NCBI GenBank assembly: GCA_017470905.1
Contig: JAFUXL010000009.1
Span: 62,001 to 126,000, forward strand
Source of the DNA: Ruminococcus sp.
Lineage (GTDB): Bacteria > Bacillota > Clostridia > Oscillospirales > Ruminococcaceae
Reading direction: 5' to 3'
Length of the DNA: 64,000 nt
Part shown: one piece after another, positions 11,068 to 57,224 of the stretch
How positions within the stretch are numbered: the first letter of the stretch is position 1
How the letters are laid out: each line of letters opens with the position of its first letter
Notes under the pieces: model-generated
Told to the model about the DNA's origin: nothing
The model's input: only the letters and a program-made list of their open reading frames with translations
The model's database searches: none
Translations under genes and position numbers: made by a program

Positions 11068-11160
11068 TTAAAGTCGTCAATTTGCGCCCCTTAAATCTTG
11101 CGCTTTCGTTCACTGCGCTGCGCTCCGTTCACTCCCAGTGCAAGGGCGCAAATTTCCTCC
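11068..11160 (-). repeat. Family C structured leader element, copy 1 (before the cobU-like gene)
   Basis: In minus-strand sense: GGAGGAAATTTGCGCCC, then stem P2 5' arm CTTGCACT, an apical region with two GTGAACG boxes around GGAGCGCAGCGCA, P2 3' arm AGCGCAAG, then the P1 3' arm GGGGCGCAAATT and GACGACTTTAAA. P1 pairs AATTTGCGCC with GGCGCAAATT. P2 has one A-C mismatch. The element starts 4 bases after the cobS stop and ends 20 bases before the next ATG. Confidence 0.85.
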
Positions 11161-11164
11161 TATT

Positions 11165-11908
11165 TTAAACCAACGCCGCAAATGCCGTAACAAGCTCGCA
11201 GACCTGCAAGAACCAGCCTGCCGTATCGCCTGTTATTCCGCCTATCTCCTTATAAAATTTAAATCTGTAATACATCATGACCAAAACAGCCGAAAGAATA
11301 ACGCATATTCCGCTTTTTGGATTTATTAAAACCAATGCCGCCACGCATAAAACCAGCCATACCGCCAGAATTACAAGGCTGATTTTCCTGTGCGAGGGCT
11401 TGACAAAAGCCTGCAATGCACCGTCCTTTTTCGCCGATTTGAATGTAATTGCGCAAAATCCGCTCAACGTCCTCGACAATACAAACGTAAGCGATATAAC
11501 CAGCGCAGATTTTAAATTTTTTACTTCCGAATATATCCCGATTTGCAGTATGAAATACACCGCAAGCCGTATCGCCGCAAATGCCCCGATATGTGAGTCA
11601 CTCATTATTTTCAGTCTCTTGTCCTTATCCCCGTAAGAAGCAAGCATATCGCTCGTATCGCAGAAACCGTCAATATGTATTCCGCCCGTAACCATCACGG
11701 GTATGACCGCCCCGACACAGGAGAAAAATATATCCCCCATGCCGAGATAACTGCACAATATCCGCCAGAGTATGAATATTCCGCCCTGAACCGCCCCGAC
11801 CAGCGGAAAAAAGCTAAGTGCATATCGTCTGTTTTCTTCTTTCCATTCGACCTGCGGAACGGGTATTCTTGAATACATGAGAAAGGCAGAAAGTAATGAT
11901 TTCAGCAT
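11165..11908 (-). CDS. cobS: Adenosylcobinamide-GDP ribazoletransferase CobS (cobalamin synthase)
   Basis: Membrane enzyme joining adenosylcobinamide-GDP with alpha-ribazole (phosphate). It has 247 residues and about six to seven membrane helices. The family signature GGIHIDGFCDTSDMLASYGDK holds the Asp-rich metal site, and SDSHIGAFAAIRLA follows. It starts 3 bases after the cobU stop, so nucleotide-loop genes cobT, cobU and cobS are consecutive. Confidence 0.95.
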   Translation of the reverse strand: MLKSLLSAFLMYSRIPVPQVEWKEENRRYALSFFPLVGAVQGGIFILWRILCSYLGMGDIFFSCVGAVIPVMVTGGIHIDGFCDTSDMLASYGDKDKRLKIMSDSHIGAFAAIRLAVYFILQIGIYSEVKNLKSALVISLTFVLSRTLSGFCAITFKSAKKDGALQAFVKPSHRKISLVILAVWLVLCVAALVLINPKSGICVILSAVLVMMYYRFKFYKEIGGITGDTAGWFLQVCELVTAFAALV

Positions 11909-11911
11909 GAT

Positions 11912-12430
11912 TTATTTCAAAGCTCCTTTTATGACAATAGGTATACCGAACACACATTCCACGACATTATCGGCAAATTCCGCAGTTTTCGCATTTATCT
12001 CCGATATGAAACGCATATAACGCATAGTCTCCTCGGAATAGACTATTCCGTCAGACGATACCTCATTCGATACAATCACAAATTCGGAAACATTTTCGCT
12101 TATTTTTCTGAAAGCATTCAATATTTTTTCGACGGGGTTTTCTGTATCTTTTCCCGAAAACATCTCATTTGCAAGGAGATTTCCGGCACATTCAAGCAGT
12201 ACCGCCGAATTTTCGGGAAATTCAAGCTCGTGCAAATCCGTATATTTTTCAACCGTCACGAAATTTTTCTCCGCCCTCATTGAACGATGCCTTCCGATAG
12301 ACCTCAGAGCCTCCTCGCCGTATGGACGCATTGTAGCAATATAGTATTTTCTCCCCCCGAAATTATGCAGGTAATTTTCCGCAAAGCCCGATTTGCCGCA
12401 TTTTGAACCGCCTGTAACCAGTGTCGTCAT
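11912..12430 (-). CDS. cobU: Adenosylcobinamide kinase / adenosylcobinamide-phosphate guanylyltransferase CobU
   Basis: Bifunctional enzyme that phosphorylates adenosylcobinamide and then transfers GMP to give adenosylcobinamide-GDP. The P-loop GGSKCGKS is at residues 7-14, the guanylylated-His block GRHRSMR at 46-52, and VSNEVSSDGI is the NEVG equivalent. 172 residues, full length. Its start overlaps the cobT stop by 4 bases. Confidence 0.95.
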   Translation of the reverse strand: MTTLVTGGSKCGKSGFAENYLHNFGGRKYYIATMRPYGEEALRSIGRHRSMRAEKNFVTVEKYTDLHELEFPENSAVLLECAGNLLANEMFSGKDTENPVEKILNAFRKISENVSEFVIVSNEVSSDGIVYSEETMRYMRFISEINAKTAEFADNVVECVFGIPIVIKGALK

Positions 12431-13476
12431 GATAATTTTTTGTACCTCTCTATTCCAAGCTCCTCAAAGCTGTGAGAGTTATTGTATATCGAAACCGCAC
12501 CGTCAAGCAGCGGCAGCAATAACATTCCGCCCGTTCCCTCACCGAGCCGCAAGCCTGCATTTATCACCGCTTTAAGCCCCATGAAGTCGAGCAGCATTTT
12601 CCCAGCAGGCTCTTCCGATACGTGTGACGGGAGCATATAATCCGCACAGGCAGGAGAAAGCATAAAGGCAAGTGCCGCCGAAACCGCCGAAATTACGCCG
12701 TCTATCACTATCGGCACATGATATATCGCACCCCCAAGAAATAGCCCCGTCATGCCTGCTATGTCAAGTCCGCCGACCTTCGCAAGAATATCAATCGGGC
12801 TGCTCCTGTCGGGGGAATTTTTCCTCACAGCCGCATTGACAACCTCGATTTTACGCTTTAAACCGTCATCTGTAAGCCCTGCGCCCCTGCCCGTCACGGT
12901 TTCGGCATCAACTCCAAGAATTACCGATGAAACGGCGGCGGCGGCAGTGGTGTTTCCTATCCCCATTTCGCCCGTGATTATAATATTTTTACCATTTTCT
13001 TTAAGCTGCTTAACCATGTCAATTCCCACAGATACGGCATTTTTTGCCTGATTTTCAGACATAGCCGCACCGTGCAAAATATTTTCCGTGCCGTGCATTA
13101 TATTTTTCATGACAAGATTTTTGCATGAAACTTCGTTCTTTATACCTATGTCAACGACGGCAACATCGGCATTGAACTGCCTTGCAAGGGCATTTATATT
13201 CGACCTGCCCCCGGCAATCGCCGCCGCACACAGAGCCGTGACCTCCTGTCCCGACTGGGAGATTTTTTCCGCCGCAACGCCGTTGTCCGCACACATTATA
13301 ACCGCCGTTCTCTTCGATATATCGACATTTTCGGACTCCTGAACAGCTGAAATCTTCTCAATCATTTTTTCAAGCTCGCCGAAGCTGCCGAGGGGCTTTG
13401 CAACGCTGTTCCATTTTTCCCTCGAAATCACGGCGAATTTCTTGTCCGTGGGATTAATTAACTTAATTCTTTCCAT
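12427..13476 (-). CDS. cobT: Nicotinate-nucleotide:dimethylbenzimidazole phosphoribosyltransferase CobT
   Basis: Activates the lower-ligand base by swapping it for nicotinate on the mononucleotide, giving alpha-ribazole phosphate. Family features: PLGSFGELEKM near the N-terminus, TGEMGIGNTTAAAAV in the middle, and the C-terminal LRLGEGTGGMLLLPLLDGA with catalytic Glu. The ATG at 13476 gives 349 residues, the usual length, with GGTGA 6 bases upstream; the open frame to 13521 is inside cbiA. No lower-ligand synthesis genes (bza, bluB) are in the window. Confidence 0.94.
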   Translation of the reverse strand: MERIKLINPTDKKFAVISREKWNSVAKPLGSFGELEKMIEKISAVQESENVDISKRTAVIMCADNGVAAEKISQSGQEVTALCAAAIAGGRSNINALARQFNADVAVVDIGIKNEVSCKNLVMKNIMHGTENILHGAAMSENQAKNAVSVGIDMVKQLKENGKNIIITGEMGIGNTTAAAAVSSVILGVDAETVTGRGAGLTDDGLKRKIEVVNAAVRKNSPDRSSPIDILAKVGGLDIAGMTGLFLGGAIYHVPIVIDGVISAVSAALAFMLSPACADYMLPSHVSEEPAGKMLLDFMGLKAVINAGLRLGEGTGGMLLLPLLDGAVSIYNNSHSFEELGIERYKKLS

Positions 13477-14809
13477 TTTTTTCACCAAATTCAATACATG
13501 ATTTAATAAACCGCCGTGCAAGATTTAAGTCGGAATGAAAATACAGGTGCGGAAAGCCTGCATACAGCGATTTACTGCATATTCCGCCCCTCCATGAAGT
13601 GCCGTCACGCTTTGAAATCAGCAAATCCTCCGCATCTGCGGTACTTCTCCAGTAGTGAAATTCATGCGAAGCAATATTGTCCGATTTTCTGAATAAAAGG
13701 CTGTCGCTTTCGGGCTTCAGCCAAACATATCCGAAATGACTCAGCCTGTCCGTTTTGCAGGCACTGCCCTTTATAACTCCTGCCATAGGATAAATTTCGC
13801 CCCTGTCATTTTCGAGAAATTCATGCAGATACATAAATCCCCCGCATTCCGCAATAGTCGGAATTTCCGAATTTACAGCGGTTTTCACGGAATTGAGCAT
13901 TGAAGCGTTTTCGCTTAATTTTTCCGCATAAAGTTCGGGATAGCCGCCCGAAAGTATCAGCCCGTCCGCATTTTCGGGGATATGCTTATCATTAACCGGT
14001 GAGAAATATTCTATATGGCAGCCCATTTTTTCAAGCAGAGCAATATTATCCGAATAATTGAAACAAAATGCATTGTCGCTGCTCACCGCAATTGTCGGTC
14101 GGTATGAGGTCACGGGAGAATTTAAGCTGATATTTTCATAATTTAAGTTATCGGTAGCCGAAAATTTAAGTATTTTTTTAATTAAAAGATACTTATCGCA
14201 TAAGTCCGCCAGACCGTCAAGCTTATCATTTAAGTTAATAATTTCATCAGCCGTGATAAGTCCAAGGTGTCTGCTGTCGAAATTAAAATTATTTTCGGGG
14301 AGAAATCCGAAGTACTCCGCACCGAGTTCTTCACACAGGGAAATTGCCTGTTTTTCGAGCTTTTTAGGCAGTCGATTAAATATAAAACCGATAATTTTAT
14401 TCGGACATTTATAAGTAATAAAGCCTTTCATGACCGCACCGAGAGAGTCGCTCATTCCCCTGCAATTTATTACCATAATCACAGGGGTGTCGGTTATCTC
14501 CGAGAGGGAAAATGCCGAGCCACGGCCGCCGTCATAAAATCCCATTACCCCCTCAATCACCGAAATATCGCTGTTTTTTGAATTTTCCGCAAGAAGATAT
14601 TTTATTGTATTGTCATCGCAGAAAAAGCTGTCGAGATTATAGGAAGGTGAAGAAATTACCTTTTTGTGAAACATCGGGTCTATATAATCGGGACCGCACT
14701 TAAATGATGATAATTTAAGCCCATATCTCTGCAATAATTTAAGTAGAGCGCAGGTTACAGTGGTCTTTCCGCAGCCGCTGCCCGTGCCTGCAATCATAAT
14801 TCTGCGCAT
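13463..14809 (-). CDS. cbiA: Cobyrinic acid a,c-diamide synthase CbiA
   Basis: ATP- and glutamine-dependent amidation of the a and c side chains of cobyrinate. The N-terminal P-loop is IAGTGSGCGKTTVTCALL, and the C-terminal class I amidotransferase domain has nucleophile Cys in IAECGGFMYLHEF. 448 residues. It overlaps cbiET by 16 bases upstream and cobT by 14 downstream. Confidence 0.95.
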   Translation of the reverse strand: MRRIMIAGTGSGCGKTTVTCALLKLLQRYGLKLSSFKCGPDYIDPMFHKKVISSPSYNLDSFFCDDNTIKYLLAENSKNSDISVIEGVMGFYDGGRGSAFSLSEITDTPVIMVINCRGMSDSLGAVMKGFITYKCPNKIIGFIFNRLPKKLEKQAISLCEELGAEYFGFLPENNFNFDSRHLGLITADEIINLNDKLDGLADLCDKYLLIKKILKFSATDNLNYENISLNSPVTSYRPTIAVSSDNAFCFNYSDNIALLEKMGCHIEYFSPVNDKHIPENADGLILSGGYPELYAEKLSENASMLNSVKTAVNSEIPTIAECGGFMYLHEFLENDRGEIYPMAGVIKGSACKTDRLSHFGYVWLKPESDSLLFRKSDNIASHEFHYWRSTADAEDLLISKRDGTSWRGGICSKSLYAGFPHLYFHSDLNLARRFIKSCIEFGEKNGKN

Positions 14810-15990
14810 TTTCCGCCTCCTGTCAGGATAAAAACGGGGTTATTCGCCGACAGCATGGTATTTTTGCCGATTTTATCCGTTCTTGCCGAGAAAATTTGTA
14901 CAATTTCACAATCCAGTCCAAACTCTCCGAATGCCTCCTGAGCATCTCTGAGCGTTTCAAGCGAAACCGCAGTAACGCAGATTAAAGCATCGGATTTTTT
15001 AGCTAAAACCAGCTTAAATATCTGCTTAATTTTTCCGCTGCTGCCGCCTATAAAAACCTTGTCGGGGGCTGGAATATCATTCGGAATATCGGGCAGACAG
15101 CACTTAAATGTACTTAAATTGTCACAGCCGAATTTATGCGCATTGGCTTGTGTAAGGCTGATTGCTTCGTCTTTTTTGTCAAAAGAAAAAACCTTTCCGC
15201 CCGTACAGCGCAGAGCCGTTTCAATAGAAACAGAACCGGTTCCGCAGCCTATATCCCAACAAATATCGGCATTTTTCACGTTCATCTTCGAGGCGATAAT
15301 GCACCTTGTCTCCGATTTGGTCATGGGAATTTTGCCCCTTATAAACTCGTTGTCGTCAATTCCGCAGGGAATATAATCAATAAAATTATCGTTTACCACA
15401 ACCGCACAGCTTAAATTATCGGAAGTATAATTAATTAAATTATAAGCAAAATCATACTTAATTTTTTCGTTAAAATAACTTAAATTTTCGCCAAAATAAA
15501 CCTTAACATTACTTAAATTATAATCGCACAGGGTACGGCAGAGCATGGAAATATCCATCCGCCCGCCGAGCAGAAAGAAAGATTTCCGATTCATTTTCAC
15601 GTTGACGGCGATATTATTTTCCGTTCCGTGCAGGCTGACAAAGCGCATATCCTCCCATGTTAAGCCAAATTTCGAGCATAGATAAACGGGGGAGGAGATA
15701 CCGCAGACGATTTCGCAGCCGTCCAGACGTTCGGCAAGCTTCTTTGCGCCGCTGAAAAATCCGCAGTCGCCCGACATGAGAACAGCCGCCTGTTCTCCCC
15801 GAAGTTCCGCAATATATCGGCAAATTTCGTCCGTATCATACGTAATTTCAATCTGCTTTCCCATATCCTTGAACGGGCGCACGATTCTTTCCGCACCGAT
15901 GAGCAAATCGGAGTTTTCGATAATTTTTCGGGCTTGTACGGTCAGTGTGAGATTGCCCTCCATGCCCGTTCCTACGATATATACTTTCAC
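14794..15990 (-). CDS. cbiET: Fused CbiE-CbiT cobalt-precorrin-7 (C5)/-6B (C15) methyltransferase
   Basis: SAM-dependent methylation at C5 and C15 with loss of the C12 acetate carboxyl. Residues 1 to about 200 are a CbiE (tetrapyrrole methylase) domain starting MKVYIVGTGMEGNLTL with SGDCGFFSGA. From about residue 215 a Rossmann-type CbiT domain follows, with the SAM motif CWDIGCGTGSVSIETAL. The two domains are separate proteins in many anaerobes; here they are fused as in CobL. 398 residues. Confidence 0.95.
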   Translation of the reverse strand: MKVYIVGTGMEGNLTLTVQARKIIENSDLLIGAERIVRPFKDMGKQIEITYDTDEICRYIAELRGEQAAVLMSGDCGFFSGAKKLAERLDGCEIVCGISSPVYLCSKFGLTWEDMRFVSLHGTENNIAVNVKMNRKSFFLLGGRMDISMLCRTLCDYNLSNVKVYFGENLSYFNEKIKYDFAYNLINYTSDNLSCAVVVNDNFIDYIPCGIDDNEFIRGKIPMTKSETRCIIASKMNVKNADICWDIGCGTGSVSIETALRCTGGKVFSFDKKDEAISLTQANAHKFGCDNLSTFKCCLPDIPNDIPAPDKVFIGGSSGKIKQIFKLVLAKKSDALICVTAVSLETLRDAQEAFGEFGLDCEIVQIFSARTDKIGKNTMLSANNPVFILTGGGKCAEL

Positions 15991-15995
15991 TTAAA

Positions 15996-16733
15996 TTATC
16001 CTCCCGTTAATAGTAATTTTTTTACCTCGTCAAGAGATATTCCCTCATCTGGCGGACGTTTAAGGGTGACAAGGCGAATGCCACAAATTTCAGCCGCTTT
16101 TGCCTTTTCGGAGTATCCGCCCGCCGAGCCGCTTTCCTTTGTGAGCAGAATTTCCGCATTGCAAAGCCTTATATCGGAGATATTTTTTTCGAGGGAAAAC
16201 GGCGGATTTTCCGCAATTATATGCTCTTTCGGAAATCCTGCCTCAATGCATTGCCTGAAATTAGCCTCAATCGGGAGTATTCTAATCCATACACGCTCTT
16301 TAAAATTTTTAATTGTGGTAATTTCATGACATTCCTTGCAGCCCATTGTACTTAAAATACTGCCGCTTGAATTATTGCATAAAGTGATTATTTCACTTAA
16401 ATTATCAAAAATTAAGCCCGATAATTTAATCTCATTCCGCTTAATTCTTAAATATTTAATCCCCGTGCAGACGGATTTTATATTTTCGGTAATTTCGGCG
16501 GCATAGGGGTGAGTAGCGTCAATAACGGCTGTATATCGCCGTTTTTGCAGGATTTCGTCGATTTCGTCCCGGTTCTTCCTGCCTGTCATAATATTGATAT
16601 ATTTGCTTTTCGGAAGAAGATTTGCACCAAAATCCGTGGTCACGCAAATATCGGCTGAAATTTCGTATTCTGCGCAAAATTCCGCAAGAAGCCGTCCCTC
16701 TGTCGTTCCGCCGAATATCAGAACATCAGACAT
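15996..16733 (-). CDS. cbiJ: Cobalt-precorrin-6A reductase CbiJ/CobK
   Basis: Reduces the macrocycle of (cobalt-)precorrin-6A with a nicotinamide cofactor. 245 residues, N-terminal LIFGGTTEGRLLAEF nucleotide-binding block, a VIDATHPYAAEIT motif and a C-terminal LLTKESGSAGGYSEKA block typical of CobK. It starts 8 bases inside the end of cbiH and ends 5 bases before cbiET. Confidence 0.93.
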   Translation of the reverse strand: MSDVLIFGGTTEGRLLAEFCAEYEISADICVTTDFGANLLPKSKYINIMTGRKNRDEIDEILQKRRYTAVIDATHPYAAEITENIKSVCTGIKYLRIKRNEIKLSGLIFDNLSEIITLCNNSSGSILSTMGCKECHEITTIKNFKERVWIRILPIEANFRQCIEAGFPKEHIIAENPPFSLEKNISDIRLCNAEILLTKESGSAGGYSEKAKAAEICGIRLVTLKRPPDEGISLDEVKKLLLTGG

Positions 16734-17454
16734 TGAAATACCCCCTCGGAGTTACCATTTTTCCCCGAATTACAGCCGTTTCGGAGTTTCCGACAAAAAC
16801 AGTCGTGAACATATCCACGCTTTCCTGCGAAAGCTCATTCAATGTCATAATTTTACTATTTTCTCCCTCTCTGCCGATATTTCTGACATAGCCGCAGACG
16901 GTTTCGGGAGACTTGTATTCGAGCATGATTTTGCAGGCTTTTGCGAGATAATCGGCTCTTTTTCGGGACGATGGGTTATAAATCACTATCGTAAAATCGG
17001 CTTGGGAGGCTAATCTAAGCCTTTTTTCGATTTTTTCGGGAGGGGTGAGCAGGTCGGAAAGGCTTATCACGGCGAAATCGTGCGTCAGGGGTGCGCCGAG
17101 GATTGCTCCGCCGCTGAGAGCCGCCGTCACGCCTGCGACTGCCACAATTTCCACGGACGGAAAATCCGCCGACATCTCAATGGCAAGCCCTGCCATTCCG
17201 TAGACGGAGCTGTCGCCGCTGCATACGAGAGCCGTGTTTTTTCCCGATTTAGCGCACTTTAAAGCCATTTTAACACGTTCCTTTTCCATTCTCATTCCCG
17301 TTGAAAGGAAGGTTTTTTCGGGAAAATATTTGGTTAAAATATCTGTATATGTAGTGTATCCCACAATTAAATCACTTGATTTTATGGCATTTTCAGCCTC
17401 CAAGGTCATTCCCTCACGGCTTCCGCAGCCAAATCCGACAACGTACAATTTCAT
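16726..17454 (-). CDS. cbiH: Cobalt-precorrin-3B C17-methyltransferase CbiH
   Basis: Tetrapyrrole methylase that methylates C17 and drives ring contraction in the anaerobic path. 242 residues with the family pattern: VVGFGCGSREGMTLEA at the N-terminus, CSGDSSVYGMAGLA (SAM loop), and IVIYNPSSRKRADYL near residue 160. It overlaps cbiG by 4 bases. Confidence 0.95.
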   Translation of the reverse strand: MKLYVVGFGCGSREGMTLEAENAIKSSDLIVGYTTYTDILTKYFPEKTFLSTGMRMEKERVKMALKCAKSGKNTALVCSGDSSVYGMAGLAIEMSADFPSVEIVAVAGVTAALSGGAILGAPLTHDFAVISLSDLLTPPEKIEKRLRLASQADFTIVIYNPSSRKRADYLAKACKIMLEYKSPETVCGYVRNIGREGENSKIMTLNELSQESVDMFTTVFVGNSETAVIRGKMVTPRGYFNV

Positions 17455-21882: not shown

Positions 21883-21884
21883 AA

Positions 21885-23724: not shown

Positions 23725-23732
23725 ATTTAAAA

Positions 23733-23830
23733 TGGGGGAACGCCGCCGTTAAAGCCTTGTGTCTCCGTTCACTCCGCAAAGCTGTGTTCACTCCCGACAC
23801 AAGAGTGGCTTTTCCCCCAAGCCCCCTTTC
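23733..23830 (-). repeat. Family C element, copy 2a (before the FAD dehydrogenase)
   Basis: Minus-strand sense: outer stem here is GGGGGAA with TTCCCCC instead of the AAATTTTCGCC type. P2 is CTTGTGTC/GACACAAG, perfect. The two GTGAAC boxes flank CAGCTTTGCGGA; in the sister copy 2b this loop can form CGCA-GCTT-TGCG. Ends 8 bases before the ATG at 23724. Confidence 0.85.
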
Positions 23831-23834
23831 TAAA

Positions 23835-23930
23835 TGTGGGAACACCGCCGTTAAAGCCCTGTGTCTCCGTTCACTCCGCAAAGCTGCGTTCACTCCCGAC
23901 ACAAGAGCGGCTTTTCCCCCAAGCCCCCTT
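23835..23930 (-). repeat. Family C element, copy 2b (tandem with 2a)
   Basis: Near-identical tandem duplicate of copy 2a, about 102 bases upstream of it, with P2 CTTGTGTC/GACACAGG and apical CGCA-GCTT-TGCG. The few differences (for example CGCAGC against CACAGC in the loop) suggest a fairly recent duplication. Confidence 0.85.
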
Positions 23931-38576: not shown

Positions 38577-38694
38577 GAGGAAATTTTCGCCCTTGTGCTG
38601 GGAGTGAACGGAGCGTAGCGAAGTGAACGAAATCACAAGGTTCAGAAGGCGAAATCCCCCAAGGGGACTTCCTTCGGGCGATTGACGAATTTAA
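38577..38694 (+). repeat. Family C element, copy 3, with an extra hairpin insert
   Basis: Plus-strand sense. 5' part GAGGAAATTTTCGCCC, P2 CTTGTGCT/ATCACAAG (one mismatch), GTGAACG boxes around GAGCGTAGCGAA. The 3' side is unusual: GGCGAAATC is followed by CCCCCAAGGGGACTTCCTTCGGG before ATTGACGAATTT, an insert also present alone at 52326-52362. Ends 18 bases before the CTG start at 38713. Confidence 0.8.
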
Positions 38695-49700: not shown

Positions 49701-49729
49701 ATTATACCACATATATTAATAAAAATCAA
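49701..49729 (-). promoter_or_regulatory. Promoter of the hydrolase-tex unit
   Basis: Minus strand TTGATT, 17-base spacer, TATAAT, about 40 bases before the ATG. Confidence 0.75.
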
Positions 49730-49739
49730 GCGTTAATTA

Positions 49740-49930: not shown

Positions 49931-49932
49931 AT

Positions 49933-50781: not shown

Positions 50782-50784
50782 AAA

Positions 50785-52176
50785 ATGCTTACAGGAACGC
50801 CGTATATCCCCGAAGTGATAACCGTACATCTCGGTACTCCCGACTCCGATGCGCCGAATGTAACGGTTGACTTTGCCTCATACATAAAAAATGTCGCATC
50901 GAGCGAAATTTTCCCGACATGGCCTGAAAGTGCGCTGAGGGCGAATATATATGCAATAGTCAGCTTTGCCCTCAACAGAATATATACCGAATGGTACAGG
51001 TCAAGGGGGTATGATTTTGATATAACCGCAACGACACAGTATGACCAGAAATTCATAAACGGCAGGGAGTATTTTCAGAATATCAGCTATCTTGTCGATG
51101 AATTATTCAACGACTATGTGCGCAGACAGGGAAGCATTGAACCGCTGTTCACGGCATTCTGCAACGGTACGACAGTAACCTGCGAGGGGCTTTCGCAGTG
51201 GGGAACGGTATCCCTTGCAAATCAGGGCTTTACTCCCTACGAGATATTACAGTATTACTACGGAGATGATATAGAGATTGTGAAAAATGCACCCGTAAAA
51301 AGCACCATGCCGTCATTTCCCGGAATTGACCTTGAATTTGGCTCGGCAGGAAATGACGTGCGCTCAATGCAGATATTTCTCAACAGGATATCGGGCAATT
51401 ATCCCGCTATCCCGAAAATCCCCGCCGCAGACGGAATATTCGATGCCGCAACTCAGGAAGCCGTCAGAACCTTTCAGGAGGTATTCGGCTTAAGACCAAC
51501 GGGAATTATCGACCAGTCAACATGGTACAGGATAACTTATATTTACACGAGCGTCAAGAGAATTGCGGAGCTTGACTCGGAGGGCGTGCGCCTCGAAGAA
51601 GTATCTCCCGCATTCACGGAGGATTTGAAAATAGGTATGCAGAGCATGGAAGTGAGTATGCTGCAATATTATCTTGCGGTAATAGGAGCATATTACGAGG
51701 CTGTCGAGCCTGTGGAGATAACGGGATATTTCGGAGAAATGACCGAAAAATCCGTGAAATCCTTTCAGAGAGTTTTCGGACTTCCCCAGACGGGAGAGGT
51801 TGACCGTGCGACAAGAAACGACCTCTACAGGGCTTACAGAGGCATAGCCGAAACGGTAAAGCCCGAATATACCGATGTTGCACTCTATCCCGGAACGGTA
51901 CTGCGTGAGGGCGACTCGGGCGAGTCCGTGCGCATAATTCAGGAATATCTTTCGCTTATACACAACACATACAATAATATTCCTGCGGTGAATAATACGG
52001 GATATTTCGGACCCCTTACAAGACAGTCAGTCACGGCATTTCAAAGACAGTTCGGCATAAACCCCACGGGAATTGTCGGGGCTGTCACATGGGACGCAAT
52101 AGCAGGGGTATATTCGGATTTGAAATACGGTTTCGACAAACGTCCCTACCAGAACCCCGGCTACACGATAAGTTAA
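50785..52176 (+). CDS. SpoIID-like domain fused to three peptidoglycan-binding domains
   Basis: 463 residues, no signal peptide. Residues 20-170 resemble the SpoIID/LytB fold: SYIKNVASSEIFPTWPESAL with Glu41 in the place of the SpoIID catalytic Glu, two Cys (126, 133), and CEGLSQWGTVSLANQG then PYEILQYYYG, the SpoIID C-terminal block. Three PG_binding_1 domains follow (about 185-260, 285-360, 380-455), each with the GYFGxxTxxSVxxFQRxFG-type pattern. SpoIID is a lytic transglycosylase of engulfment; this is probably a spore-stage wall protein, but the similarity is partial. Confidence 0.78.
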   Translation: MLTGTPYIPEVITVHLGTPDSDAPNVTVDFASYIKNVASSEIFPTWPESALRANIYAIVSFALNRIYTEWYRSRGYDFDITATTQYDQKFINGREYFQNISYLVDELFNDYVRRQGSIEPLFTAFCNGTTVTCEGLSQWGTVSLANQGFTPYEILQYYYGDDIEIVKNAPVKSTMPSFPGIDLEFGSAGNDVRSMQIFLNRISGNYPAIPKIPAADGIFDAATQEAVRTFQEVFGLRPTGIIDQSTWYRITYIYTSVKRIAELDSEGVRLEEVSPAFTEDLKIGMQSMEVSMLQYYLAVIGAYYEAVEPVEITGYFGEMTEKSVKSFQRVFGLPQTGEVDRATRNDLYRAYRGIAETVKPEYTDVALYPGTVLREGDSGESVRIIQEYLSLIHNTYNNIPAVNNTGYFGPLTRQSVTAFQRQFGINPTGIVGAVTWDAIAGVYSDLKYGFDKRPYQNPGYTIS

Positions 52177-52393
52177 TGCATAATGCATAATTCATAATGC
52201 AGAATTATAATCTGCCCTCCGCCTGCGGTAAGGGTACAGAGAAAAATAATTGTCCTTAATGATATACAACAGAAAACGTTTTTCCTCCGCCTGCGGCGGA
52301 GGAAAAACGAAAAAACCAGATTAAATGGGCGAAATCCCCCAAGGTGACTTCCTTCGGTCGTTATGAATTAAGAATTATGAATTAATTTAATAC
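52177..52393. repeat. Repeat mosaic after the SpoIID-like gene
   Basis: In order: family A run (52174-52205) starting at the stop codon; a short decayed CCTCCGCC-TGC-GGTAAGGG hairpin (52215-52233); family B perfect hairpin GTTTTTCCTCCGCC-TGC-GGCGGAGGAAAAAC (52278-52308); a GGGCGAAATCCCCCAAGG...CTTCGG block (52326-52362) like the insert in family C copy 3; and a second family A run (52361-52388). No gene. Confidence 0.75.
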
Positions 52394-52485
52394 AGAAGAA
52401 ATTTTCGCCCTTGTGCTGAAAGCGAACGGAGCGCAGCGCAGTGAACGAAAGCACAAGATTAAAGGGGCAAAAATTGACGATTTTA
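52394..52485 (+). repeat. Family C element, copy 5 (before a peptidoglycan-binding protein gene)
   Basis: Plus-strand sense: P1 AAATTTTCGCCC with GGGGCAAAAATT; P2 CTTGTGCT/AGCACAAG, perfect; the first box is GCGAACG, the second GTGAACG, around GAGCGCAGCGCA. Followed by GACGATTTTAGA and AAGGAG, then the ATG 15 bases after the element. Confidence 0.87.
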
Positions 52486-52500
52486 GATAAGGAGTGTTTT

Positions 52501-53022
52501 ATGGCATATACAAATATTCAGAAAAAACAGCATATTTATGAATTGCAGACTTATCTTCATGCAATAGCACTTATGAATGACAAAATACCCGTAATAATCC
52601 CGGACGGCATATACGGCAAGGAAACCTCCCTCGCCGTCATGGCTTTTCAGCGTGAATACGGTCTTAATGACACGGGCAGCACCGACCCCGCAACATGGAA
52701 TAAAATCGTAAGCGTTTACCGCAGCTATCTTGTCGGAAAACCCCAGCCCTATGCGGTATTCCCCTCCCCCGACTACGTTGCCAAAAACGGCGACAGCGGT
52801 CAGCTCGTCTATATAATTCAGGCTATGCTCAACGATATAGGCAAATGCTATGACAATGCCCCCGATGTGGACGTATGCGGAGAATACAACGAAATTACCG
52901 CCTCCGCAGTAAGACGTTTCCAGCAGTGGAGCGGCATTCCCCAGAACGGAAGAGTTGACAGCGGAACATGGAATATGCTTGTTCACTGTTGTGAACACAT
53001 ATTAAGAATGCATAATTCATAA
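52501..53022 (+). CDS. Peptidoglycan-binding protein with two PG_binding_1 domains
   Basis: 173 residues from the ATG at 52501 (AAGGAG 6 bases upstream). Two domains: about 10-75 (IPDGIYGKETSLAVMAFQREYG) and about 95-165 (VCGEYNEITASAVRRFQQWSG). No signal or enzymatic domain. The C-terminal residues LRMHNS are encoded by a family A repeat. The open frame back to 52441 reads into the family C element (MNESTRLKGQKL) and is an artefact. Related to the three-domain protein upstream. Confidence 0.85.
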   Translation: MAYTNIQKKQHIYELQTYLHAIALMNDKIPVIIPDGIYGKETSLAVMAFQREYGLNDTGSTDPATWNKIVSVYRSYLVGKPQPYAVFPSPDYVAKNGDSGQLVYIIQAMLNDIGKCYDNAPDVDVCGEYNEITASAVRRFQQWSGIPQNGRVDSGTWNMLVHCCEHILRMHNS

Positions 53023-53055
53023 TGCATAATTAGTAATGCCTTCGGCATTACCAAT
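53006..53055. repeat. Family A run plus TAATGC hairpin at a gene end
   Basis: CATAATTCATAATGCATAA run over the stop codon, then AGTAATGC-CTTC-GGCATTACC, the same small hairpin as near 33760. Confidence 0.7.
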
Positions 53056-53074
53056 TACAAAATATGATAAAAAT

Positions 53075-53106
53075 ATTCCCGTCGACAAGGACGGGAATTA
53101 TTTTTT
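53075..53106. terminator. Terminator between convergent genes
   Basis: Perfect ATTCCCGTC-6-base loop-GACGGGAAT, followed on the plus strand by TATTTTTTAAT. Serves the plus-strand gene and possibly pncB from the other side. Confidence 0.85.
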
Positions 53107-54544
53107 AATAATTAAACGACTCGGCAAGAAGTCTCGATTTGAGTTCCCATAAACGGTGGGAAAGGTCTACATAATAATCGTGCGGATTTTCAAAACGTCT
53201 TACCTCGTCCCATATTGTCGAGAGCTGTTCCTTGCAGTAAGCCTTTATTTCCTCAATATCGGGGGATTTATAGATGCATTTTCCCTTATCGAATATCTGA
53301 ACCTGCAATTTTTTTGCTGTGAAGTTTATAAGCGTCATTCTCTTATATGTCTGCTGAGGGTCAAATATAGTATAGGGCTTTGTATCGTCAATTACCTCTC
53401 CTGCAAGGGTAATGACATCGGCGACAGCCTTTCCCGTGTCGTTGTCGAATAATCTCCATACCTCTTTGTACGATGGATTGGTTATTTTGGTTACATTTTC
53501 GGATATTTTTATCTTCGGGATAATACTGCCCTTTTCCTCCACGGCGACAAGCTTGTAAACCCCGCCGAATACAGGTTCTGACTTTGATGTGACAAGCCTC
53601 TCCCCTACTCCGAATATATCCACCTCTGCGCCCTGCATTATCAAATCCCTGATTATAAATTCATCGAGGGAATTTGATGCGACTATCTTAATATAATCAA
53701 GCCCCGCATCGTCAAGCATTTTTCTTGTCTTTTTGGAGAGATAGGCAATATCTCCGCTGTCAATTCTCACTCCTGCGCCTTTGTATCCCTTTTCTTCGAG
53801 TTCCTTGAAAACGGTTATCGCATTAGGAACTCCCGACCGCAGAACGCTGTATGTATCTATAAGAAGTGTACAGCTTTCGGGATATACCTTTGCATAAGCC
53901 CTGAAAGCCTCCAGTTCGCTCGGAAACAACTGCACCCAGCTGTGCGCCATAGTTCCCATAGCCTTAACTCCGAAATCCCTGTCGGAAATAGTACAAGCCG
54001 TACCTGCACAGCCGCCGATATATGCCGCCCTTGCGCCGTATACAGCCCCGTCATAGCCCTGCGCCCTGCGTGAGCCAAATTCCATGACGGGGCGACCCTG
54101 CGCCGCCTCTGTAATTCTGTGGGCTTTTGTGGCGATGAGCGACTGATGATTTATCGTAAGCAGCACCATGGTTTCGATAAACTGCGCCTGAATGGCAGAA
54201 CCTCTGACAGTTATAAGCGGTTCGTTCGGGAATATGGGAGTACCCTCGGGTATCGCCCATACGTCACATTCAAATTTAAAATTCTTAAGATATTCAAGAA
54301 ATTCCTCGCAGAAAATATTCTTATTCCTGAGATATTCTATATCTTTATCGGTAAACTCAAGATTTTCGAGGTATTCTATAAGCTGTTCAACGCCTGCCAT
54401 TACCGCATAGCCTGCATTGTCGGGTACTTTTCGGAAGAACATATCAAAATATGCTGTTTCCTGTCCTCTGCCGTTTTCAAAAAATCCGTTTGCCATAGTA
54501 AGCTCATAAAAATCAACCAGCATTGTAAGATTTCTCTTATCCAT
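53105..54544 (-). CDS. pncB: Nicotinate phosphoribosyltransferase
   Basis: Salvage of nicotinate to nicotinate mononucleotide in NAD synthesis. The ATG at 54544 (AAGGAG 6 bases upstream) gives 479 residues starting MDKRNLTMLVDFYELTMANG. Active-site blocks: FGSRRAQGYDGAVYGARAA, MGTMAHSWVQLF with the phosphorylated His, GVRIDSGDIAYLSKK, and VASNSLDE. The longer frame to 54718 comes from two family C elements. Confidence 0.95.
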   Translation of the reverse strand: MDKRNLTMLVDFYELTMANGFFENGRGQETAYFDMFFRKVPDNAGYAVMAGVEQLIEYLENLEFTDKDIEYLRNKNIFCEEFLEYLKNFKFECDVWAIPEGTPIFPNEPLITVRGSAIQAQFIETMVLLTINHQSLIATKAHRITEAAQGRPVMEFGSRRAQGYDGAVYGARAAYIGGCAGTACTISDRDFGVKAMGTMAHSWVQLFPSELEAFRAYAKVYPESCTLLIDTYSVLRSGVPNAITVFKELEEKGYKGAGVRIDSGDIAYLSKKTRKMLDDAGLDYIKIVASNSLDEFIIRDLIMQGAEVDIFGVGERLVTSKSEPVFGGVYKLVAVEEKGSIIPKIKISENVTKITNPSYKEVWRLFDNDTGKAVADVITLAGEVIDDTKPYTIFDPQQTYKRMTLINFTAKKLQVQIFDKGKCIYKSPDIEEIKAYCKEQLSTIWDEVRRFENPHDYYVDLSHRLWELKSRLLAESFNY

Positions 54545-54560
54545 TTTTATCTCCTTATTT

Positions 54561-54650
54561 AAAATCGTCAGTTTTCGCCTCTTTAATCTTGTGCTTTCGT
54601 TCACTGCGCTGCGCTCCGTTCTCTCCCAGCACAAGGGCGCAATTTTCCTA
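54561..54650 (-). repeat. Family C element, copy 6 (before pncB)
   Basis: Minus-strand sense: P1 AAAATTGCGCCC with GAGGCGAAAACT (weaker pairing); P2 CTTGTGCT/AGCACAAG, perfect; boxes GAGAACG and GTGAACG. Ends 16 bases before the ATG. Confidence 0.85.
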
Positions 54651-54655
54651 TATTT

Positions 54656-54747
54656 AAAATCGTCAATCTTCGCCCCTTTAATCTTGCCACTTCGTTCACT
54701 TGGCACAGCTACGTTCACTTTCGTGGCAAGGGCGAAAATTTCCTCTT
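54656..54747 (-). repeat. Family C element, copy 7 (tandem with copy 6)
   Basis: P1 AAATTTTCGCCC with GGGGCGAAGATT; P2 is CTTGCCAC/GTGGCAAG, a fully compensated variant of the CTTGTGCT/AGCACAAG stem in copy 6. Boxes GTGAACG twice around TAGCTGTGCCAA. Confidence 0.85.
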
Positions 54748-54759
54748 AATAATCCCAAA

Positions 54760-54806
54760 TTTAATTATGAATTATGCATTATGAATTATGCATTAATTAT
54801 GCATTG
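54760..54806. repeat. Family A run
   Basis: AATTATG/GCATTA words over about 45 bases between the family C pair and the upstream lipoprotein gene. Confidence 0.7.
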
Positions 54807-54819
54807 ACAACAGTTTTTG

Positions 54820-55623
54820 TCAATAATAACCATATTCAGACCATTCGTCATAATAACCGTAATTATAACGGTTTTCATCGGGGTCGTATGGCTGTGCCTC
54901 ATTTATGTGATAATTTTCGGGAACGGTTGAAAAATCGGGAGCTTTCTGCCATGAGTCGTCATATTCGACACCCTCCGAATTGAAATGCTCCTGTAATTGT
55001 GATATAATATCCTCTGCGCTCTGCGTTTTTACATATTTGCTTATCATCGGGAAATACATCTGCACATCGGAATTTTCCGAAAGATACGGGCAATAAAAAT
55101 CTATCGCCGCACATTCCGAATAAACCAGCGGGGGATTTGCGATATTATCCGCACTTTCTATCTTAGGCACGGAAGAAACCGCTTCGGCGGCTTTATTCAC
55201 AACGCTTTCTATATCATCATAGGTATTGTACATCACGGTAAATCTGACGGAATTTACCGTATCGCCCTCGCTCCATGAGGGTATCATATCCATACCGGAA
55301 AGAGCCTGATAATATTCGGGGTGCGCTTTCAGATACATTACCTGATAATCCTCCGTGATACGATAGGATATTTCGCTTTCTTCGGTACTTGACGGAACGT
55401 TTGTCGCTTCAACAAAAAAATGGCACTGCACGCCGTCCTCGTCCGTAAAGATATAGCATATATCGCTGTCATTTTCGGAGGTTTCCGCAAGGCTGAAATT
55501 TCTGTCGTACAGCTGTCCGAGGTAATCTGCGGCTTCCTCCTGACTGATTTTATCCTGCTCCGCACAGCCGCACGAAATTAAAGCAAGCACGGCTGAAACC
55601 ATAAATAATCCTGATTTTTTCAT
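54820..55623 (-). CDS. Lipoprotein of unknown function
   Basis: 267 residues with a lipoprotein signal (MKKSGLFMVSAVLALISCGC). Acidic mature protein with a Tyr-rich tail (YNYGYYDEWSEYGYY). Not recognised. An AT-rich leader precedes it, with TTTTACACT/ATACT-like stretches but no promoter I would assert. Confidence 0.75.
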   Translation of the reverse strand: MKKSGLFMVSAVLALISCGCAEQDKISQEEAADYLGQLYDRNFSLAETSENDSDICYIFTDEDGVQCHFFVEATNVPSSTEESEISYRITEDYQVMYLKAHPEYYQALSGMDMIPSWSEGDTVNSVRFTVMYNTYDDIESVVNKAAEAVSSVPKIESADNIANPPLVYSECAAIDFYCPYLSENSDVQMYFPMISKYVKTQSAEDIISQLQEHFNSEGVEYDDSWQKAPDFSTVPENYHINEAQPYDPDENRYNYGYYDEWSEYGYY

Positions 55624-55689
55624 ACATCATCCGCTTCCCGATTTTTTATACTTTAATTTTACACTATTTTGCCGAAAACGTCAAGACCC

Positions 55690-55882
55690 TTTTTTAATTC
55701 ATAATTCATAATTAAGAATTAAGAATTATGAATTAAGAATTAACTATAAGACGGCACTTTAAAATAACGCACAAAAAATTTTATATCTTGTCTGTTTTCC
55801 CCGTCCTTAAACAGACGAGGAAAATATTATTAAAAATTATTAATTTACGGCAATAAATTCAATTATGAATTATGCATTATTT
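55690..55882. repeat. Repeat mosaic between two lipoprotein genes
   Basis: Family A run (55693-55745), family B element with variant hairpin TTTTCCCCGTC/GACGAGGAAAA (55795-55824) and its ACAAAAAATTTTATAT arm, then family A words (55862-55882) overlapping the end of the next gene. No gene in the stretch. Confidence 0.7.
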
Positions 55883-57025
55883 ATATCTTGCGTATCCGTC
55901 TGCGCCTGTATTTATGGCAAGCTCTGCCTGCCGTTCGATTATATCGGGGTTGTCTATCCATTCGCCCTCGCCTGCCTCTCCTGCCCATTCATCGCCCTTT
56001 CCGACCTTGTACTCGGCAAGTCCAACAATGAGAGATACTCCGCTGCCTGCGGTTATCTCCTCCCATTCATAAAGGGTACTCTCAAAGGGGCATATCTCGT
56101 TTTCAAAGCCGAAATATATCTGCGGAACGATATAATCACAATATCCCCTCTGTCCGCCCCATAGCCTCACATCTGCATACTGCGACTCATAATCGGCATT
56201 GATATTCCCCTGCGGACTTATCCCGAAAACCACATCATTTCCGTATGTCCTGACCGTATCATAAAGGGCTTTGACAAATGCAGTACAGTTTTCGGTTCTC
56301 CATTCGGCTAAATCATATGCGCCGCTGTTTTCAAATTCCGTATCGTCAAATTCCTCAAAGCTTGTCGGGTAGAAATAATCGTCAATATGAATGCCGTCAA
56401 CGTTATAATTTTCTATTATCTCCTCGGCACATCTGCATATCAAATCCCTGACCTCTTCGTAAGAGGGGTCGAGATACCACCTGCCGTTGACGATTTTTGC
56501 AAACCTGCAATCGGGGTCGTCAGCCCATTGCTTAATTATAAAGCTGTCGTCAAGATATTTCATCTCCTCAACGCTCTGACATCTGAGCGGATTAATCCAC
56601 GCATGGGCGGATATTTTCAGCGCATGAGCCTCCTGTGTCATTATTTCAAGCGGGTCATAATCGCCGTCAAGCATTGCGCCTTTCGGGAATATTTCAGAAT
56701 TATAATATGCATCCGCAAAAGGATGCGCATGGATATAAAGCGTATTCACCCCCTCATCACGGGCGGCTGAAAATTCTTCCTTTACAATCTCCCTGAACTC
56801 GTCCTCGGATTTGCCGTGCATATATTCCTCATATCTTATATACGGTATCCAGAGGGCATTCTGATTTTTATAATTTATCCTGCCGCTGATTGCCTGTATA
56901 TCGCTCTGTGAGGGAGGTATGTCCTCGACAAGAGAGGTTTCGGGCTGTACGTCATTATCGGGGATTTGCGGAACTGTACACGACACAAGGGCAAGCATCG
57001 GAATTAATAAAATTAATTTTTTCAT
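55877..57025 (-). CDS. GHL10/DUF187-type glycoside hydrolase-like lipoprotein
   Basis: 382 residues with lipobox LVSC (Cys16). The TIM-barrel pattern of family-10-like glycosyl hydrolases (DUF187) is clear: GVNTLYIHAHPFADAYY, LKISAHAWINPLR, DPSYEEVRDLICRCAEEI, NVDGIHIDDYFYPTSF with probable catalytic Asp residues, and VFGISPQGNI. Probably cell-surface and acting on a polysaccharide or peptidoglycan sugar; substrate unknown. Two family C elements precede it; GGAGA is the ribosome site. Confidence 0.88.
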   Translation of the reverse strand: MKKLILLIPMLALVSCTVPQIPDNDVQPETSLVEDIPPSQSDIQAISGRINYKNQNALWIPYIRYEEYMHGKSEDEFREIVKEEFSAARDEGVNTLYIHAHPFADAYYNSEIFPKGAMLDGDYDPLEIMTQEAHALKISAHAWINPLRCQSVEEMKYLDDSFIIKQWADDPDCRFAKIVNGRWYLDPSYEEVRDLICRCAEEIIENYNVDGIHIDDYFYPTSFEEFDDTEFENSGAYDLAEWRTENCTAFVKALYDTVRTYGNDVVFGISPQGNINADYESQYADVRLWGGQRGYCDYIVPQIYFGFENEICPFESTLYEWEEITAGSGVSLIVGLAEYKVGKGDEWAGEAGEGEWIDNPDIIERQAELAINTGADGYARYK

Positions 57026-57040
57026 AATCTTCTCCTATTT

Positions 57041-57132
57041 ATAGTCGTCAATTTTTGTCTGTTAATACTTGCCATTTCGTTCACTTCACTTTGTTGCGTT
57101 CACTATCATGGCAAGGACAAAAATTTCCTCTT
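57041..57132 (-). repeat. Family C element, copy 8 (before the GHL10-type gene)
   Basis: P1 is AAATTTTTGTCC with AGACAAAAATT, a compensated change from the usual CGCC/GGCG; P2 is CTTGCCAT/ATGGCAAG, also compensated. Boxes GTGAACG twice around CAACAAAGTGAA. Ends 15 bases before the ATG. Confidence 0.87.
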
Positions 57133-57224
57133 AAAATCGTAAATTTTCGCCTTCTAAACCTTGTGTCTTTGTTCACTTCGCTATGCTTCATTCACTCCCG
57201 ACACAAGGGCGAAAATTTCCTCTG
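57133..57224 (-). repeat. Family C element, copy 9 (tandem with copy 8)
   Basis: P1 AAATTTTCGCCC with AAGGCGAAAATT; P2 CTTGTGTC/GACACAAG, perfect; boxes GTGAATG and GTGAACA. The gene on its far side (57397) is divergent, so the pair lies in a true 5' leader, not an operon gap. Confidence 0.85.

What the first reader, a model, noticed from the sequence alone, without database searches (positions are those of the whole stretch)
11068..57224. Family C: a structured element always placed in sense just before start codons
Seen directly: nine copies of about 92-98 bases (11068-11160, 23733-23830, 23835-23930, 38577-38694, 52394-52485, 54561-54650, 54656-54747, 57041-57132, 57133-57224) at six loci. 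At all six the element has the same orientation as the following gene and ends 8-20 bases before its start. Common plan in sense: GAGG, P1 arm (AAATTTTCGCCC type), P2 arm (CTTGTGCT type), GTGAACG box, short variable loop, second GTGAACG box, P2 and P1 return arms, then GACGATTTTAAA. The P2 stem changes in a compensated way: TGCT/AGCA, TGTC/GACA, CCAC/GTGG, CCAT/ATGG. So does P1: CGCC/GGCG, GTCC/AGAC, and GGGGGAA/TTCCCCC. Such covariation suggests selection on an RNA structure. The downstream genes (cobU-like, FAD dehydrogenase, membrane-methyltransferase, PG-binding protein, pncB, GHL10-type lipoprotein) are unrelated, so it may be a global 5'-leader regulator, protein-binding site, or a REP-like element adopted as a leader. 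I know of no described RNA family with this plan.
Basis: partly seen in the sequence, partly recalled or inferred. Interest (0 to 1): 0.78.

Follow-up and report, generated by a model that had tools for sequence, protein, structure and literature searches.

The report
Mobile hairpin parked before start codons
A gut Ruminococcus-like bacterium carries well over a hundred copies of a short DNA hairpin that sit, mostly facing the same way, just in front of the ribosome-binding site of unrelated genes, most likely because a mobile element inserts there, although a role in gene control is not excluded.

Summary
A model from the nine window copies finds 137 copies at 90 loci in 1.17 Mb of the host assembly. 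Of 86 loci with a known downstream gene 80 are in sense; 67 of 90 end within 30 nt of the start, where random placement gives 8.4%. The right edge mostly abuts the Shine-Dalgarno (SD). Stem covariation is strong. A-type (GAGG...GACGATTTTA) is strict: 57 of 68 loci. G-type (GGGGG...CCCCC) is looser: 9 of 20, 5 opposite. R1 reports 3 of 125 genus genomes; G-type-like kin occur in other genera. Sites filled in one species are often empty in another. Arrays of unlike copies and four nested insertions suggest repeated targeting of an SD-like purine core. I read it as a non-autonomous mobile palindrome aimed at SDs; no mobilising enzyme was found in three families searched. Against a purely parasitic reading, the host and G037 carry copies at the same genes (13 of 20 versus 13 of 228), most copies stay paired, and A-type mispairs lean to G-T. 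A retained RNA leader function is not excluded. No Rfam family reached its gathering score at the copies.

The parts
11069..11159 (-). A-type copy, upstream of a cobU-like gene (ATG 11047)
   Evidence: R1 match 105.6 bits; PF02283 on the downstream gene; sequence
23728..23818 (-). G-type copy (GGGGG...CCCCC ends), second of a tandem pair, 3 nt before ATG 23724 of a FAD-dependent protein gene
   Evidence: R1 match 90.7 bits; PF21688; sequence
23830..23920 (-). G-type copy, first of the same tandem pair
   Evidence: R1 match 85.5 bits
38577..38693 (+). A-type copy interrupted near its right end by a small hairpin insert (CCCCCAAGGGGACTTCCTTCGGG); a GAGGTG SD-like sequence follows
   Evidence: R1 match 87.3 bits over 38577-38667; alignments; sequence
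52395..52485 (+). A-type copy, 15 nt before the peptidoglycan-binding protein gene at 52501
   Evidence: R1 match 102.4 bits; gene call; PF01471
54655..54745 (-). A-type copy, first of a tandem pair of unlike copies before pncB
   Evidence: R1 match 103.4 bits
54560..54650 (-). A-type copy, second of the pair, 15 nt before pncB ATG 54544
   Evidence: R1 match 97.4 bits; PF17767/PF17956
57132..57222 (-). A-type copy, first of a tandem pair of unlike copies before a GHL10 protein gene
   Evidence: R1 match 108.4 bits
57040..57130 (-). A-type copy, second of the pair, 14 nt before ATG 57025
   Evidence: R1 match 98.4 bits; PF02638

Best explanation
Family C is a non-autonomous, palindromic mobile DNA element of about 91-96 nt that inserts on one strand, directly 5' of a purine-rich core that looks like a Shine-Dalgarno sequence. 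Shown: copies end next to the SD in sense at a near-fixed spacing; sites are filled in one species and empty in another; occupied sites hold further unlike copies head to tail; and copies are nested inside other copies next to a core resembling the SD. Inferred: an enzyme acting in trans recognises the hairpin (near-invariant CTTG/CAAG foot of P2, GTGAACG boxes), and the insertion leaves the host SD downstream intact, so it is tolerated in front of genes but would be purged elsewhere. Also inferred: once in place the copy is transcribed as part of the leader, ending about 14-16 nt before the start codon, and may secondarily affect translation or mRNA life; and the G-type is the older, more widespread form, the A-type a derived form that multiplied in a three-species group.
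For: Fixed position: 67 of 90 loci in sense and within 30 nt of the start, 54 of the 80 sense loci at 13-18 nt, against 8.4% for random placement at <=30 nt; leaving out genes whose start I re-chose, 65 of 77 and 53 of 77. Sequence targeting could suffice: 116 of 139 intergenic AGGAGG and 272 of 395 AGGAG are SDs of called genes. Carrier genes have stronger SDs (5-mer or longer in 47 of 67 against 407 of 927, p 3.7e-5). Insertion polymorphism: host to relatives 17 filled and 11 empty of 28 anchored (62 of 90 not anchored; one of the 11 holds a run of N); relatives to host 18 filled and 17 empty of 35 anchored (30 of 65 not anchored). In the clearest empty allele the host SD is unchanged (own C4:293807 against L228). 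Repeat hits: 28 own loci hold unlike copies where 7-12 are expected; 44 of 79 neighbouring copies are at 85% identity or less. Four of 65 relative loci are copies at the same point of another copy's loop, next to a box of the AGTGAAC kind, which is not an SD; none of 90 own loci. Kin in other genera and in G017 abut an SD and start at 7 of 11 loci by eye. Single copies show weak left/right flank similarity (4.98 against 4.57, 0 of 300 shuffles). No common theme in 16 of 67 carrier genes scanned.
Against: No mobilising enzyme was found: Y1 transposase at E up to 0.001 not reported in G037 or G073 and only a fragment in the host; no reverse transcriptase or IS110-type transposase in the three carriers. 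Only these three families were searched, in incomplete assemblies. No clean target-site duplication: arrays show none (103 of 300 shuffles as good), and the gap from the element end to the SD varies by about 0-3 nt by eye. No identical copies at different loci of the host (best 98.9%, median nearest 88%), so no sign of very recent dispersal. The host and G037 have copies at the same genes far beyond chance (13 of 20 against 13 of 228), which a neutral element explains only through descent with strong constraint or turnover at hot spots. A-type mispairs lean to G-T (59 against 22), as an RNA structure would.
Confidence: 0.55

Rival explanations
1. A true cis-regulatory RNA leader (regulon): the hairpin is transcribed in the 5' leader and bound by a protein or acts on translation or mRNA stability, and selection keeps it in front of particular genes.
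For: Gene-level conservation between the host and G037, odds ratio 31, p 3.5e-10. At 18 shared loci (chosen by me) the copies are no more alike than shuffled pairs (336 of 2000 as high), at a distance where 4-fold sites are 55.5% identical, yet stem pairs differ by 80 compensated double changes and 5 G-T changes against 27 broken. A-type G-T exceeds A-C, 57 against 21 at locus level, p 5.6e-5. Nearly strict sense orientation of A-type.
Against: Unrelated genes (16 of 67 carriers scanned). Of 66 carriers with a known upstream neighbour 19 (29%) lie in divergent gaps, against 202 of 983 (21%) of all genes, so first genes are not singled out much. Predicted RNA folds give the full plan as minimum-energy fold in 3 of 7 A-type window copies; with the SD included, 2 of 5 fold no better than shuffles and the element pairs with the SD region in one of 5. 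The antisense strand of the one copy tried folds about as well relative to shuffles (z -3.96 against -3.40). Recently duplicated tandem copies accumulate broken pairs (17 broken, 11 G-T, 2 compensated). G-T asymmetry can come from strand-biased mutation. Repeated insertion at occupied sites can mimic retention. The second comparison, G073, is not significant (2 of 5 against 6 of 36).
Confidence: 0.25
2. A large REP-like element moved by an IS200/IS605-type (Y1, HUH) single-strand transposase acting on the strand opposite the SD, with the complement of the SD as target and CGTC or CCTC as the foot motif.
For: Hairpin with a tetranucleotide at its foot (GAGG on the sense strand, CGTC on the other), no inverted terminal repeats by eye, strand-specific insertion. 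REP rules with GTAG or GTGG 0-2 nt from the hairpin foot, and CGTC repeats without a dedicated transposase, are in passages I saw of PMC6006769 and PMC3733652.
Against: No PF01797 match reported in G037 (93% complete) or G073, only a fragment in the host. The target edge is not exact to the base. Copies are far longer than the 20-40 bp given for REPs in an abstract, and host arrays are head to tail with no opposite-strand neighbour within 400 nt; the relatives have two such pairs. The G-type lacks the CGTC motif.
Confidence: 0.1
3. Spread by recombination or template switching between short similar sequences around SDs (AAATAAGGAGG), with no transposase; stem compensation produced by palindrome-templated correction.
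For: Copies are framed by AAATAA-like and GAGG-like sequence; recent tandem duplicates exist (35 of 79 neighbouring pairs at 91% or more); no enzyme found in three families.
Against: Does not readily explain nested insertions at one point of the loop or dispersal to some 90 loci in 1.17 Mb.
Confidence: 0.1

Closest known systems
REP / REPIN elements and their RAYT (TnpA-REP) transposases, including CGTC-tagged REPs
   Same: High-copy intergenic hairpins with a foot tetranucleotide; CGTC REPs also lack a linked transposase (passages of PMC3733652; of PMC6006769).
   Different: REPs are given as 20-40 bp (abstract); in a passage on two species, REPs in same-direction gaps lie close to the 3' end of the upstream gene and at varying distance from the downstream gene. 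Here the element is 91 nt or more and mostly abuts the SD in sense, host arrays are head to tail, and no Y1 transposase was reported in G037.
Pneumococcal BOX, RUP and SPRITE repeats
   Same: Small structured dispersed repeats of one or few species, read there as parasitic; they insert into one another (passages of PMC3049150).
   Different: BOX and RUP have terminal inverted repeats and target duplications, and regions downstream of genes are said to tolerate repeats more; none of the 12 passages shown describes a copy abutting the SD in sense.
IS200/IS605-family ends and their MITEs
   Same: Subterminal hairpins, strand-specific target next to one end (passage of PMC6006769).
   Different: The target edge here varies by a few bases and no Y1 enzyme was reported in two carriers.
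Species-limited 5'-leader RNA motifs such as TD-1 and TD-2 of Treponema (recalled)
   Same: Recalled as structured motifs in leaders of many unrelated genes in one organism.
   Different: Neither name occurs in the held main text of PMC2864571, so the comparison rests on memory; no Rfam family reached its gathering score at the copies.

Membership tests
REP (GTAG or CGTC tagged) | GTAG, GTGG or CGTC tetranucleotide at a hairpin foot | tested here: inconclusive
   A-type reads GAGG on one strand and CGTC on the other; the G-type consensus has neither
REP (GTAG or CGTC tagged) | 20-40 bp palindrome; for CGTC families an 8-9 bp stem and 4-5 nt loop | tested here: not met
   91 nt, two stacked stems of 10 and 8 bp and a loop of about 32 nt
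REP / RAYT system | Y1 tyrosine transposase encoded in the genome | tested here: not met
   No PF01797 match reported in G037 and G073 at E up to 0.001; a fragment in the host; assemblies incomplete
Classical MITE (DDE type) | Terminal inverted repeats at both tips | tested here: not met
   By eye on the alignment the arms pair internally, but the tips GAGG and GACGATTTTAAATA do not
Classical MITE (DDE type) | Target-site duplication of constant length | tested here: inconclusive
   Weak similarity of flanks at 95 single copies, none at 54 arrays; examples such as AACAGGAGG and TAGGAGG
Rfam RNA family | Match to a covariance model at or above the gathering score | tested here: not met
   Only a cobalamin riboswitch and two tRNAs in the window; at E up to 1 one weak hit outside the copies in 52300-57300
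Cis-regulatory leader RNA | Conserved position in sense at the 5' end of genes with covarying structure | tested here: met
Cis-regulatory leader RNA | Stable fold of the single transcript including the SD | tested here: inconclusive
   Five window copies with downstream sequence: z -1.92, 0.00, -3.92, -2.22, 0.14
Cis-regulatory leader RNA | Common function of the downstream genes | tested here: not met
   16 of 67 carriers scanned: HSP33, S1-domain protein, DUF951, glycine radical, HPr-like, RpiB, HAD, UPF0047, GH44, flavin reductase, CobU, FAD protein, spermine-synthase-like, PG-binding, PncB, GHL10
Cis-regulatory leader RNA | Structure-dependent effect on expression | not testable with these tools
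   Needs reporter assays
Integron attC / cassette | Core sites and an integrase | not tested
   Considered because of the folded single-strand form; no search made

The most novel reading that the evidence does not exclude
A family of mobile elements has evolved to use the Shine-Dalgarno sequence as its address, and by doing so plants the same structured RNA leader in front of about one in fifteen of the genes called here (67 of 994); in the three-species group the leader is retained for expression control, so that transposition has written a genome-wide post-transcriptional regulon.
Probability: 0.23. Interest if true: 0.88.

Novelty: new variant of a known kind. Interest (0 to 1): 0.6.

Why it matters
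In the papers seen, small bacterial repeats lie at gene ends or scattered through intergenic space. One that lands in sense, a few bases before the ribosome-binding site, would be a natural way to move leader hairpins between genes and would show how a regulon could arise from a mobile element. It also makes a direct test possible: whether a hairpin placed about 15 nt before the start codon changes translation or mRNA life in many genes at once. If a targeting enzyme exists, it would be a tool that addresses start sites.

Tried and rejected
RNA-only reading from covariation: weakened because G-T and A-C mispairs over all 234 copies are equal. Redoing it on A-type alone gave 59 and 22, so neither side is settled; 18 tRNA acceptor stems as a yardstick gave 4 G-T and 0 A-C.

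GAGG as a target duplication: I first took the 5' GAGG as half of the host SD. The four nested copies carry GAGG or AAGG although the usual loop has none there, so I take it as part of the element.

Autonomous parent with the same ends: none seen in the host stretches; 0-2 loose end-like matches per probe outside the copies.

Y1 transposase, reverse transcriptase and IS110-type transposase as mobiliser: not found in G037 and G073, and in the host only a Y1 fragment. Other recombinases were not searched.

Plasmid and phage kin: one plasmid hit over 42% of a consensus query and 13 phage hits over 33%, the loop part; one viral contig holds the loop pattern, without the arms by eye.

Small ORFs inside the element: by eye a frame from the first GTGAACG box is open in some copies but stopped by TAG in others, so I dropped it; no systematic scan was run.

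Orthologous copies as markers of descent: no more alike than shuffled pairs (A-type only, 13 loci, 311 of 2000), and with 4-fold sites at 55.5% identity this cannot tell descent from re-insertion.

Literature searches on repeats and the SD (listings of 1, 13, 15 of 69 and 10 of 68 papers), on Ruminococcus repeats (5 listed) and on RAYT/REP (12 of 21 listed) showed nothing that matched by title and abstract start; one search found no paper and one. This is not proof that it is unpublished.

Limits: gene starts come from a home-made caller that itself rewards an SD. Where a called start fell inside a copy I re-chose a start downstream with a preference for a nearby SD; this touched 2 of 67 carriers. 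R1 was built from the window copies. The host assembly is 73.75% complete. Over 40 genomes the search uses stricter filters and scores few candidates per genome (34, 10); G017, found, was not reported. Of the 28 empty-site cases I displayed 21; by eye two hold decayed remnants of a copy and one holds a run of N. The 18 shared loci are the 17, one with its partner changed to the G037 copy, plus one from the reverse list.
Full report
What was checked. The window lies in a 2.04 Mb, 32-contig assembly estimated 73.75% complete. The nearest named relatives of a window protein (PncB, 84% identity) are uncultured Ruminococcus genomes, by their titles from deer and, as I read 'Lapin', rabbit. Rfam at gathering scores gives only a cobalamin riboswitch and two tRNAs in the window; at E up to 1 over 52300-57300 it gives nothing on the copies.

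Copy number and anatomy. The host has at least 150 matches (which scored 150 of 807 candidates). In 1,172,079 bases of window and stretches R1 finds 137 copies at E up to 0.001 at 90 loci: 54 single, 28 double, 5 triple and 3 quadruple. No opposite-strand neighbours lie within 400 nt in the host; the relatives have two such pairs. The A-type plan in sense is GAGG, P1 (10 bp), P2 (8 bp with a near-invariant CTTG/CAAG foot), a loop with two GTGAACG boxes, the return arms with an 8-nt bulge, and GACGATTTTAAAT. In the RNAalifold consensus the boxes face each other with paired ends around two G-A positions. Over 136 distinct sequences 94.1% of stem cells pair, the covariation score is 0.506 against 0.146 in shuffles, and sliding the partners destroys it. 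That alignment was fitted to the model, so these numbers lean towards it.

Single folds are mixed. Of seven A-type window copies folded in sense, three (57132, 54655, 57040) give P1 and P2 as minimum-energy fold, 11069 gives P1 only, and 52395, 54560 and 38577 fold otherwise. With the SD and start included, z-scores for five copies are -1.92, 0.00, -3.92, -2.22 and 0.14; the element's tail pairs with the SD region in one (11069), and in others the SD is free or partly paired with downstream sequence. The antisense strand of copy 57132 has z -3.96, sense -3.40. So the covarying plan is not always what RNA energetics prefer.

Two types. Sorting by right end gives 113 A-type, 20 G-type and 4 unclear copies. 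G-type has GGGGGYTTGGGGGA...TCCCCCATTTTAAA ends with the same loop and P2. Chimeras occur.

Placement. I wrote a simple coding-potential gene caller (994 genes, 87.5% coding). By locus: A-type 68 loci, of which 57 are in sense with the 3' end at most 30 nt before a start, 2 at 31-60, 5 beyond 60, 1 opposite and 3 at contig ends. G-type 20: 9, 2, 4, 5 opposite, 0. Unclear 2: 1 within 30 nt and 1 at a contig end. In all, 80 of the 86 loci with a known downstream gene are in sense, and 54 of those 80 end 13-18 nt before the start. Random placement in the 435 gaps of 100 nt or more gives 64.6% sense and 8.4% sense within 30 nt. Two of 90 loci overlap a called gene. Starts inside a copy were re-chosen with a bias to nearby SDs; without those genes 65 of 77 sense loci are within 30 nt and 53 at 13-18 nt. 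The listing shows the same directly, with TTTTAAAT followed by AGGAGG, GGAGG, AAGGAG and the like; a minority has no SD there.

Is the SD itself the address? Of intergenic AGGAGG, 116 of 139 are SDs of called genes; AGGAG 272 of 395; GGAGG 218 of 425; GAGG 322 of 821; AGGGG 39 of 256. Carriers have stronger SDs (47 of 67 with a 5-mer or longer, others 407 of 927, p 3.7e-5; for 4-mers 58 of 67 and 707 of 927, p 0.07). Upstream neighbours of carriers are 47 same-strand and 19 opposite (1 unknown), of all genes 781 and 202. Insertion next to an SD-like core would give most of the pattern without much preference for first genes.

Relatives. Among 125 genomes of the genus R1 reports the host, G037 and G073; a less strict search of 30 genomes also gave one match in G017. 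Among 396 genomes of the family it reports the host plus G439 (6), G483 (3) and G292 (1), with at most 10 candidates scored per genome. In those and in G017 the matches are mostly G-type-like, and by eye 7 of 11 loci abut an SD and start. The G-type model R2 finds matches in 4 of 40 genus genomes: host, G037, G017 and G047. I infer that G-type is the older form and A-type a derived one.

Empty sites. In 629,379 bases of G037 and G073 R1 finds 97 copies at 65 loci. The stretches were chosen around matches. With flank anchors, 28 of 90 host loci could be placed: 17 filled (one in opposite orientation) and 11 empty. From the relatives 35 of 65 could be placed: 18 filled and 17 empty. I displayed 21 of these 28 empty cases. 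In the clearest the host SD and spacer are unchanged and the copies sit just upstream (own C4:293807 against L228). Others are less clear because the region around the SD has also diverged; two hold decayed remnants and one a run of N.

Repeated insertion. Neighbouring copies in arrays fall into two groups: 44 of 79 at 85% identity or less (copies at different host loci average 71%) and 35 at 91% or more, recent duplicates. In the host 28 loci hold unlike copies where random insertion would give 7-12. In G037 four copies lie inside the loop of another copy, all at the same point and followed by a box of the AGTGAAC kind. SD (AGGAGG), left end of a copy (AGAGGAA) and loop box share a purine core, which I take as the likely target. 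A duplication was not established: at 95 single loci left and right flanks are slightly more alike than in shuffles (4.98 against 4.57, 0 of 300), at 54 arrays not.

Evidence for a retained function. Of 20 host genes with a copy and a usable G037 counterpart, 13 have one there too; of 228 without, 13 do (odds ratio 31, p 3.5e-10). With G073 it is 2 of 5 and 6 of 36, p 0.25. Copies at 18 shared loci are no more alike than shuffled pairs (0.722 against 0.711, 336 of 2000 as high), in relatives where 4-fold sites are 55.5% identical, yet their stems differ by 80 compensated, 5 G-T and 27 broken pairs. Either selection keeps the structure or new copies keep arriving at the same genes. In 193 nearest pairs at different loci there are 266 compensated, 54 G-T and 81 broken changes; in 30 recent tandem pairs 2, 11 and 17. 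Mispairs: all copies G-T 69, A-C 67; A-type alone 59 and 22, by locus 57 and 21, p 5.6e-5. The last favours a sense-strand structure, or a strand-biased mutation process.

Mobiliser. PF01797 (Y1) is reported in 41 of 125 genus genomes, not in G037 or G073, and as a fragment in the host. PF00078 and PF02371 are absent from the three carriers. Loose element ends outside copies are nearly absent in the host stretches.

Conclusion. The best account is a mobile palindrome with SD-like targets (0.55), then a selected RNA leader (0.25); the two can both be true. The element resembles REP and MITE elements in kind but fails size, tip and enzyme tests, so I file it as a new variant of small mobile repeats rather than a member. 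Papers: PMC3733652, PMC3049150, PMC6006769 and PMC2864571 were seen as found passages only; other papers only in search listings.

Noticed in passing
window 8098, 23929, 40686, 52361, 54765, 55719 and others: AT-rich repeats of the AATTATGAATTATGCATTA kind, by eye often just upstream of family C copies; G037 shows a diverged counterpart.
   Followed up: no
window 5516, 33808, 40490, 40564, 57225: A hairpin repeat with ACAAAAATTTTTATATTT-like sequence followed by a CCGCCTACGGCGG-type stem (family D6).
   Followed up: no
window 38655-38680 and 52330-52360; also own C1:145384 and C8:146446: A small hairpin CCCCCAAGGGGACTTCCTTCGGG inserted into, or next to, family C copies.
   Followed up: no
window 5331-5507 (-): Cobalamin riboswitch (RF00174, 83.4 bits); a cobU-like gene lies at 10637-11047.
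   Followed up: no
window 52441-53022 (+): In the copy at 52395 the GTG of the second box opens a frame that runs in phase into the peptidoglycan-binding gene.
   Followed up: no
genus-wide: A pncB match at E up to 1e-50 was found in 9 of 40 genus genomes, host included.
   Followed up: no
G037: L216:17303, L221:10775, L215:7351, L206:3918: Nested copies all sit at the same point of the host copy's loop, and about four loop bases seem to be missing to the right.
   Followed up: partly
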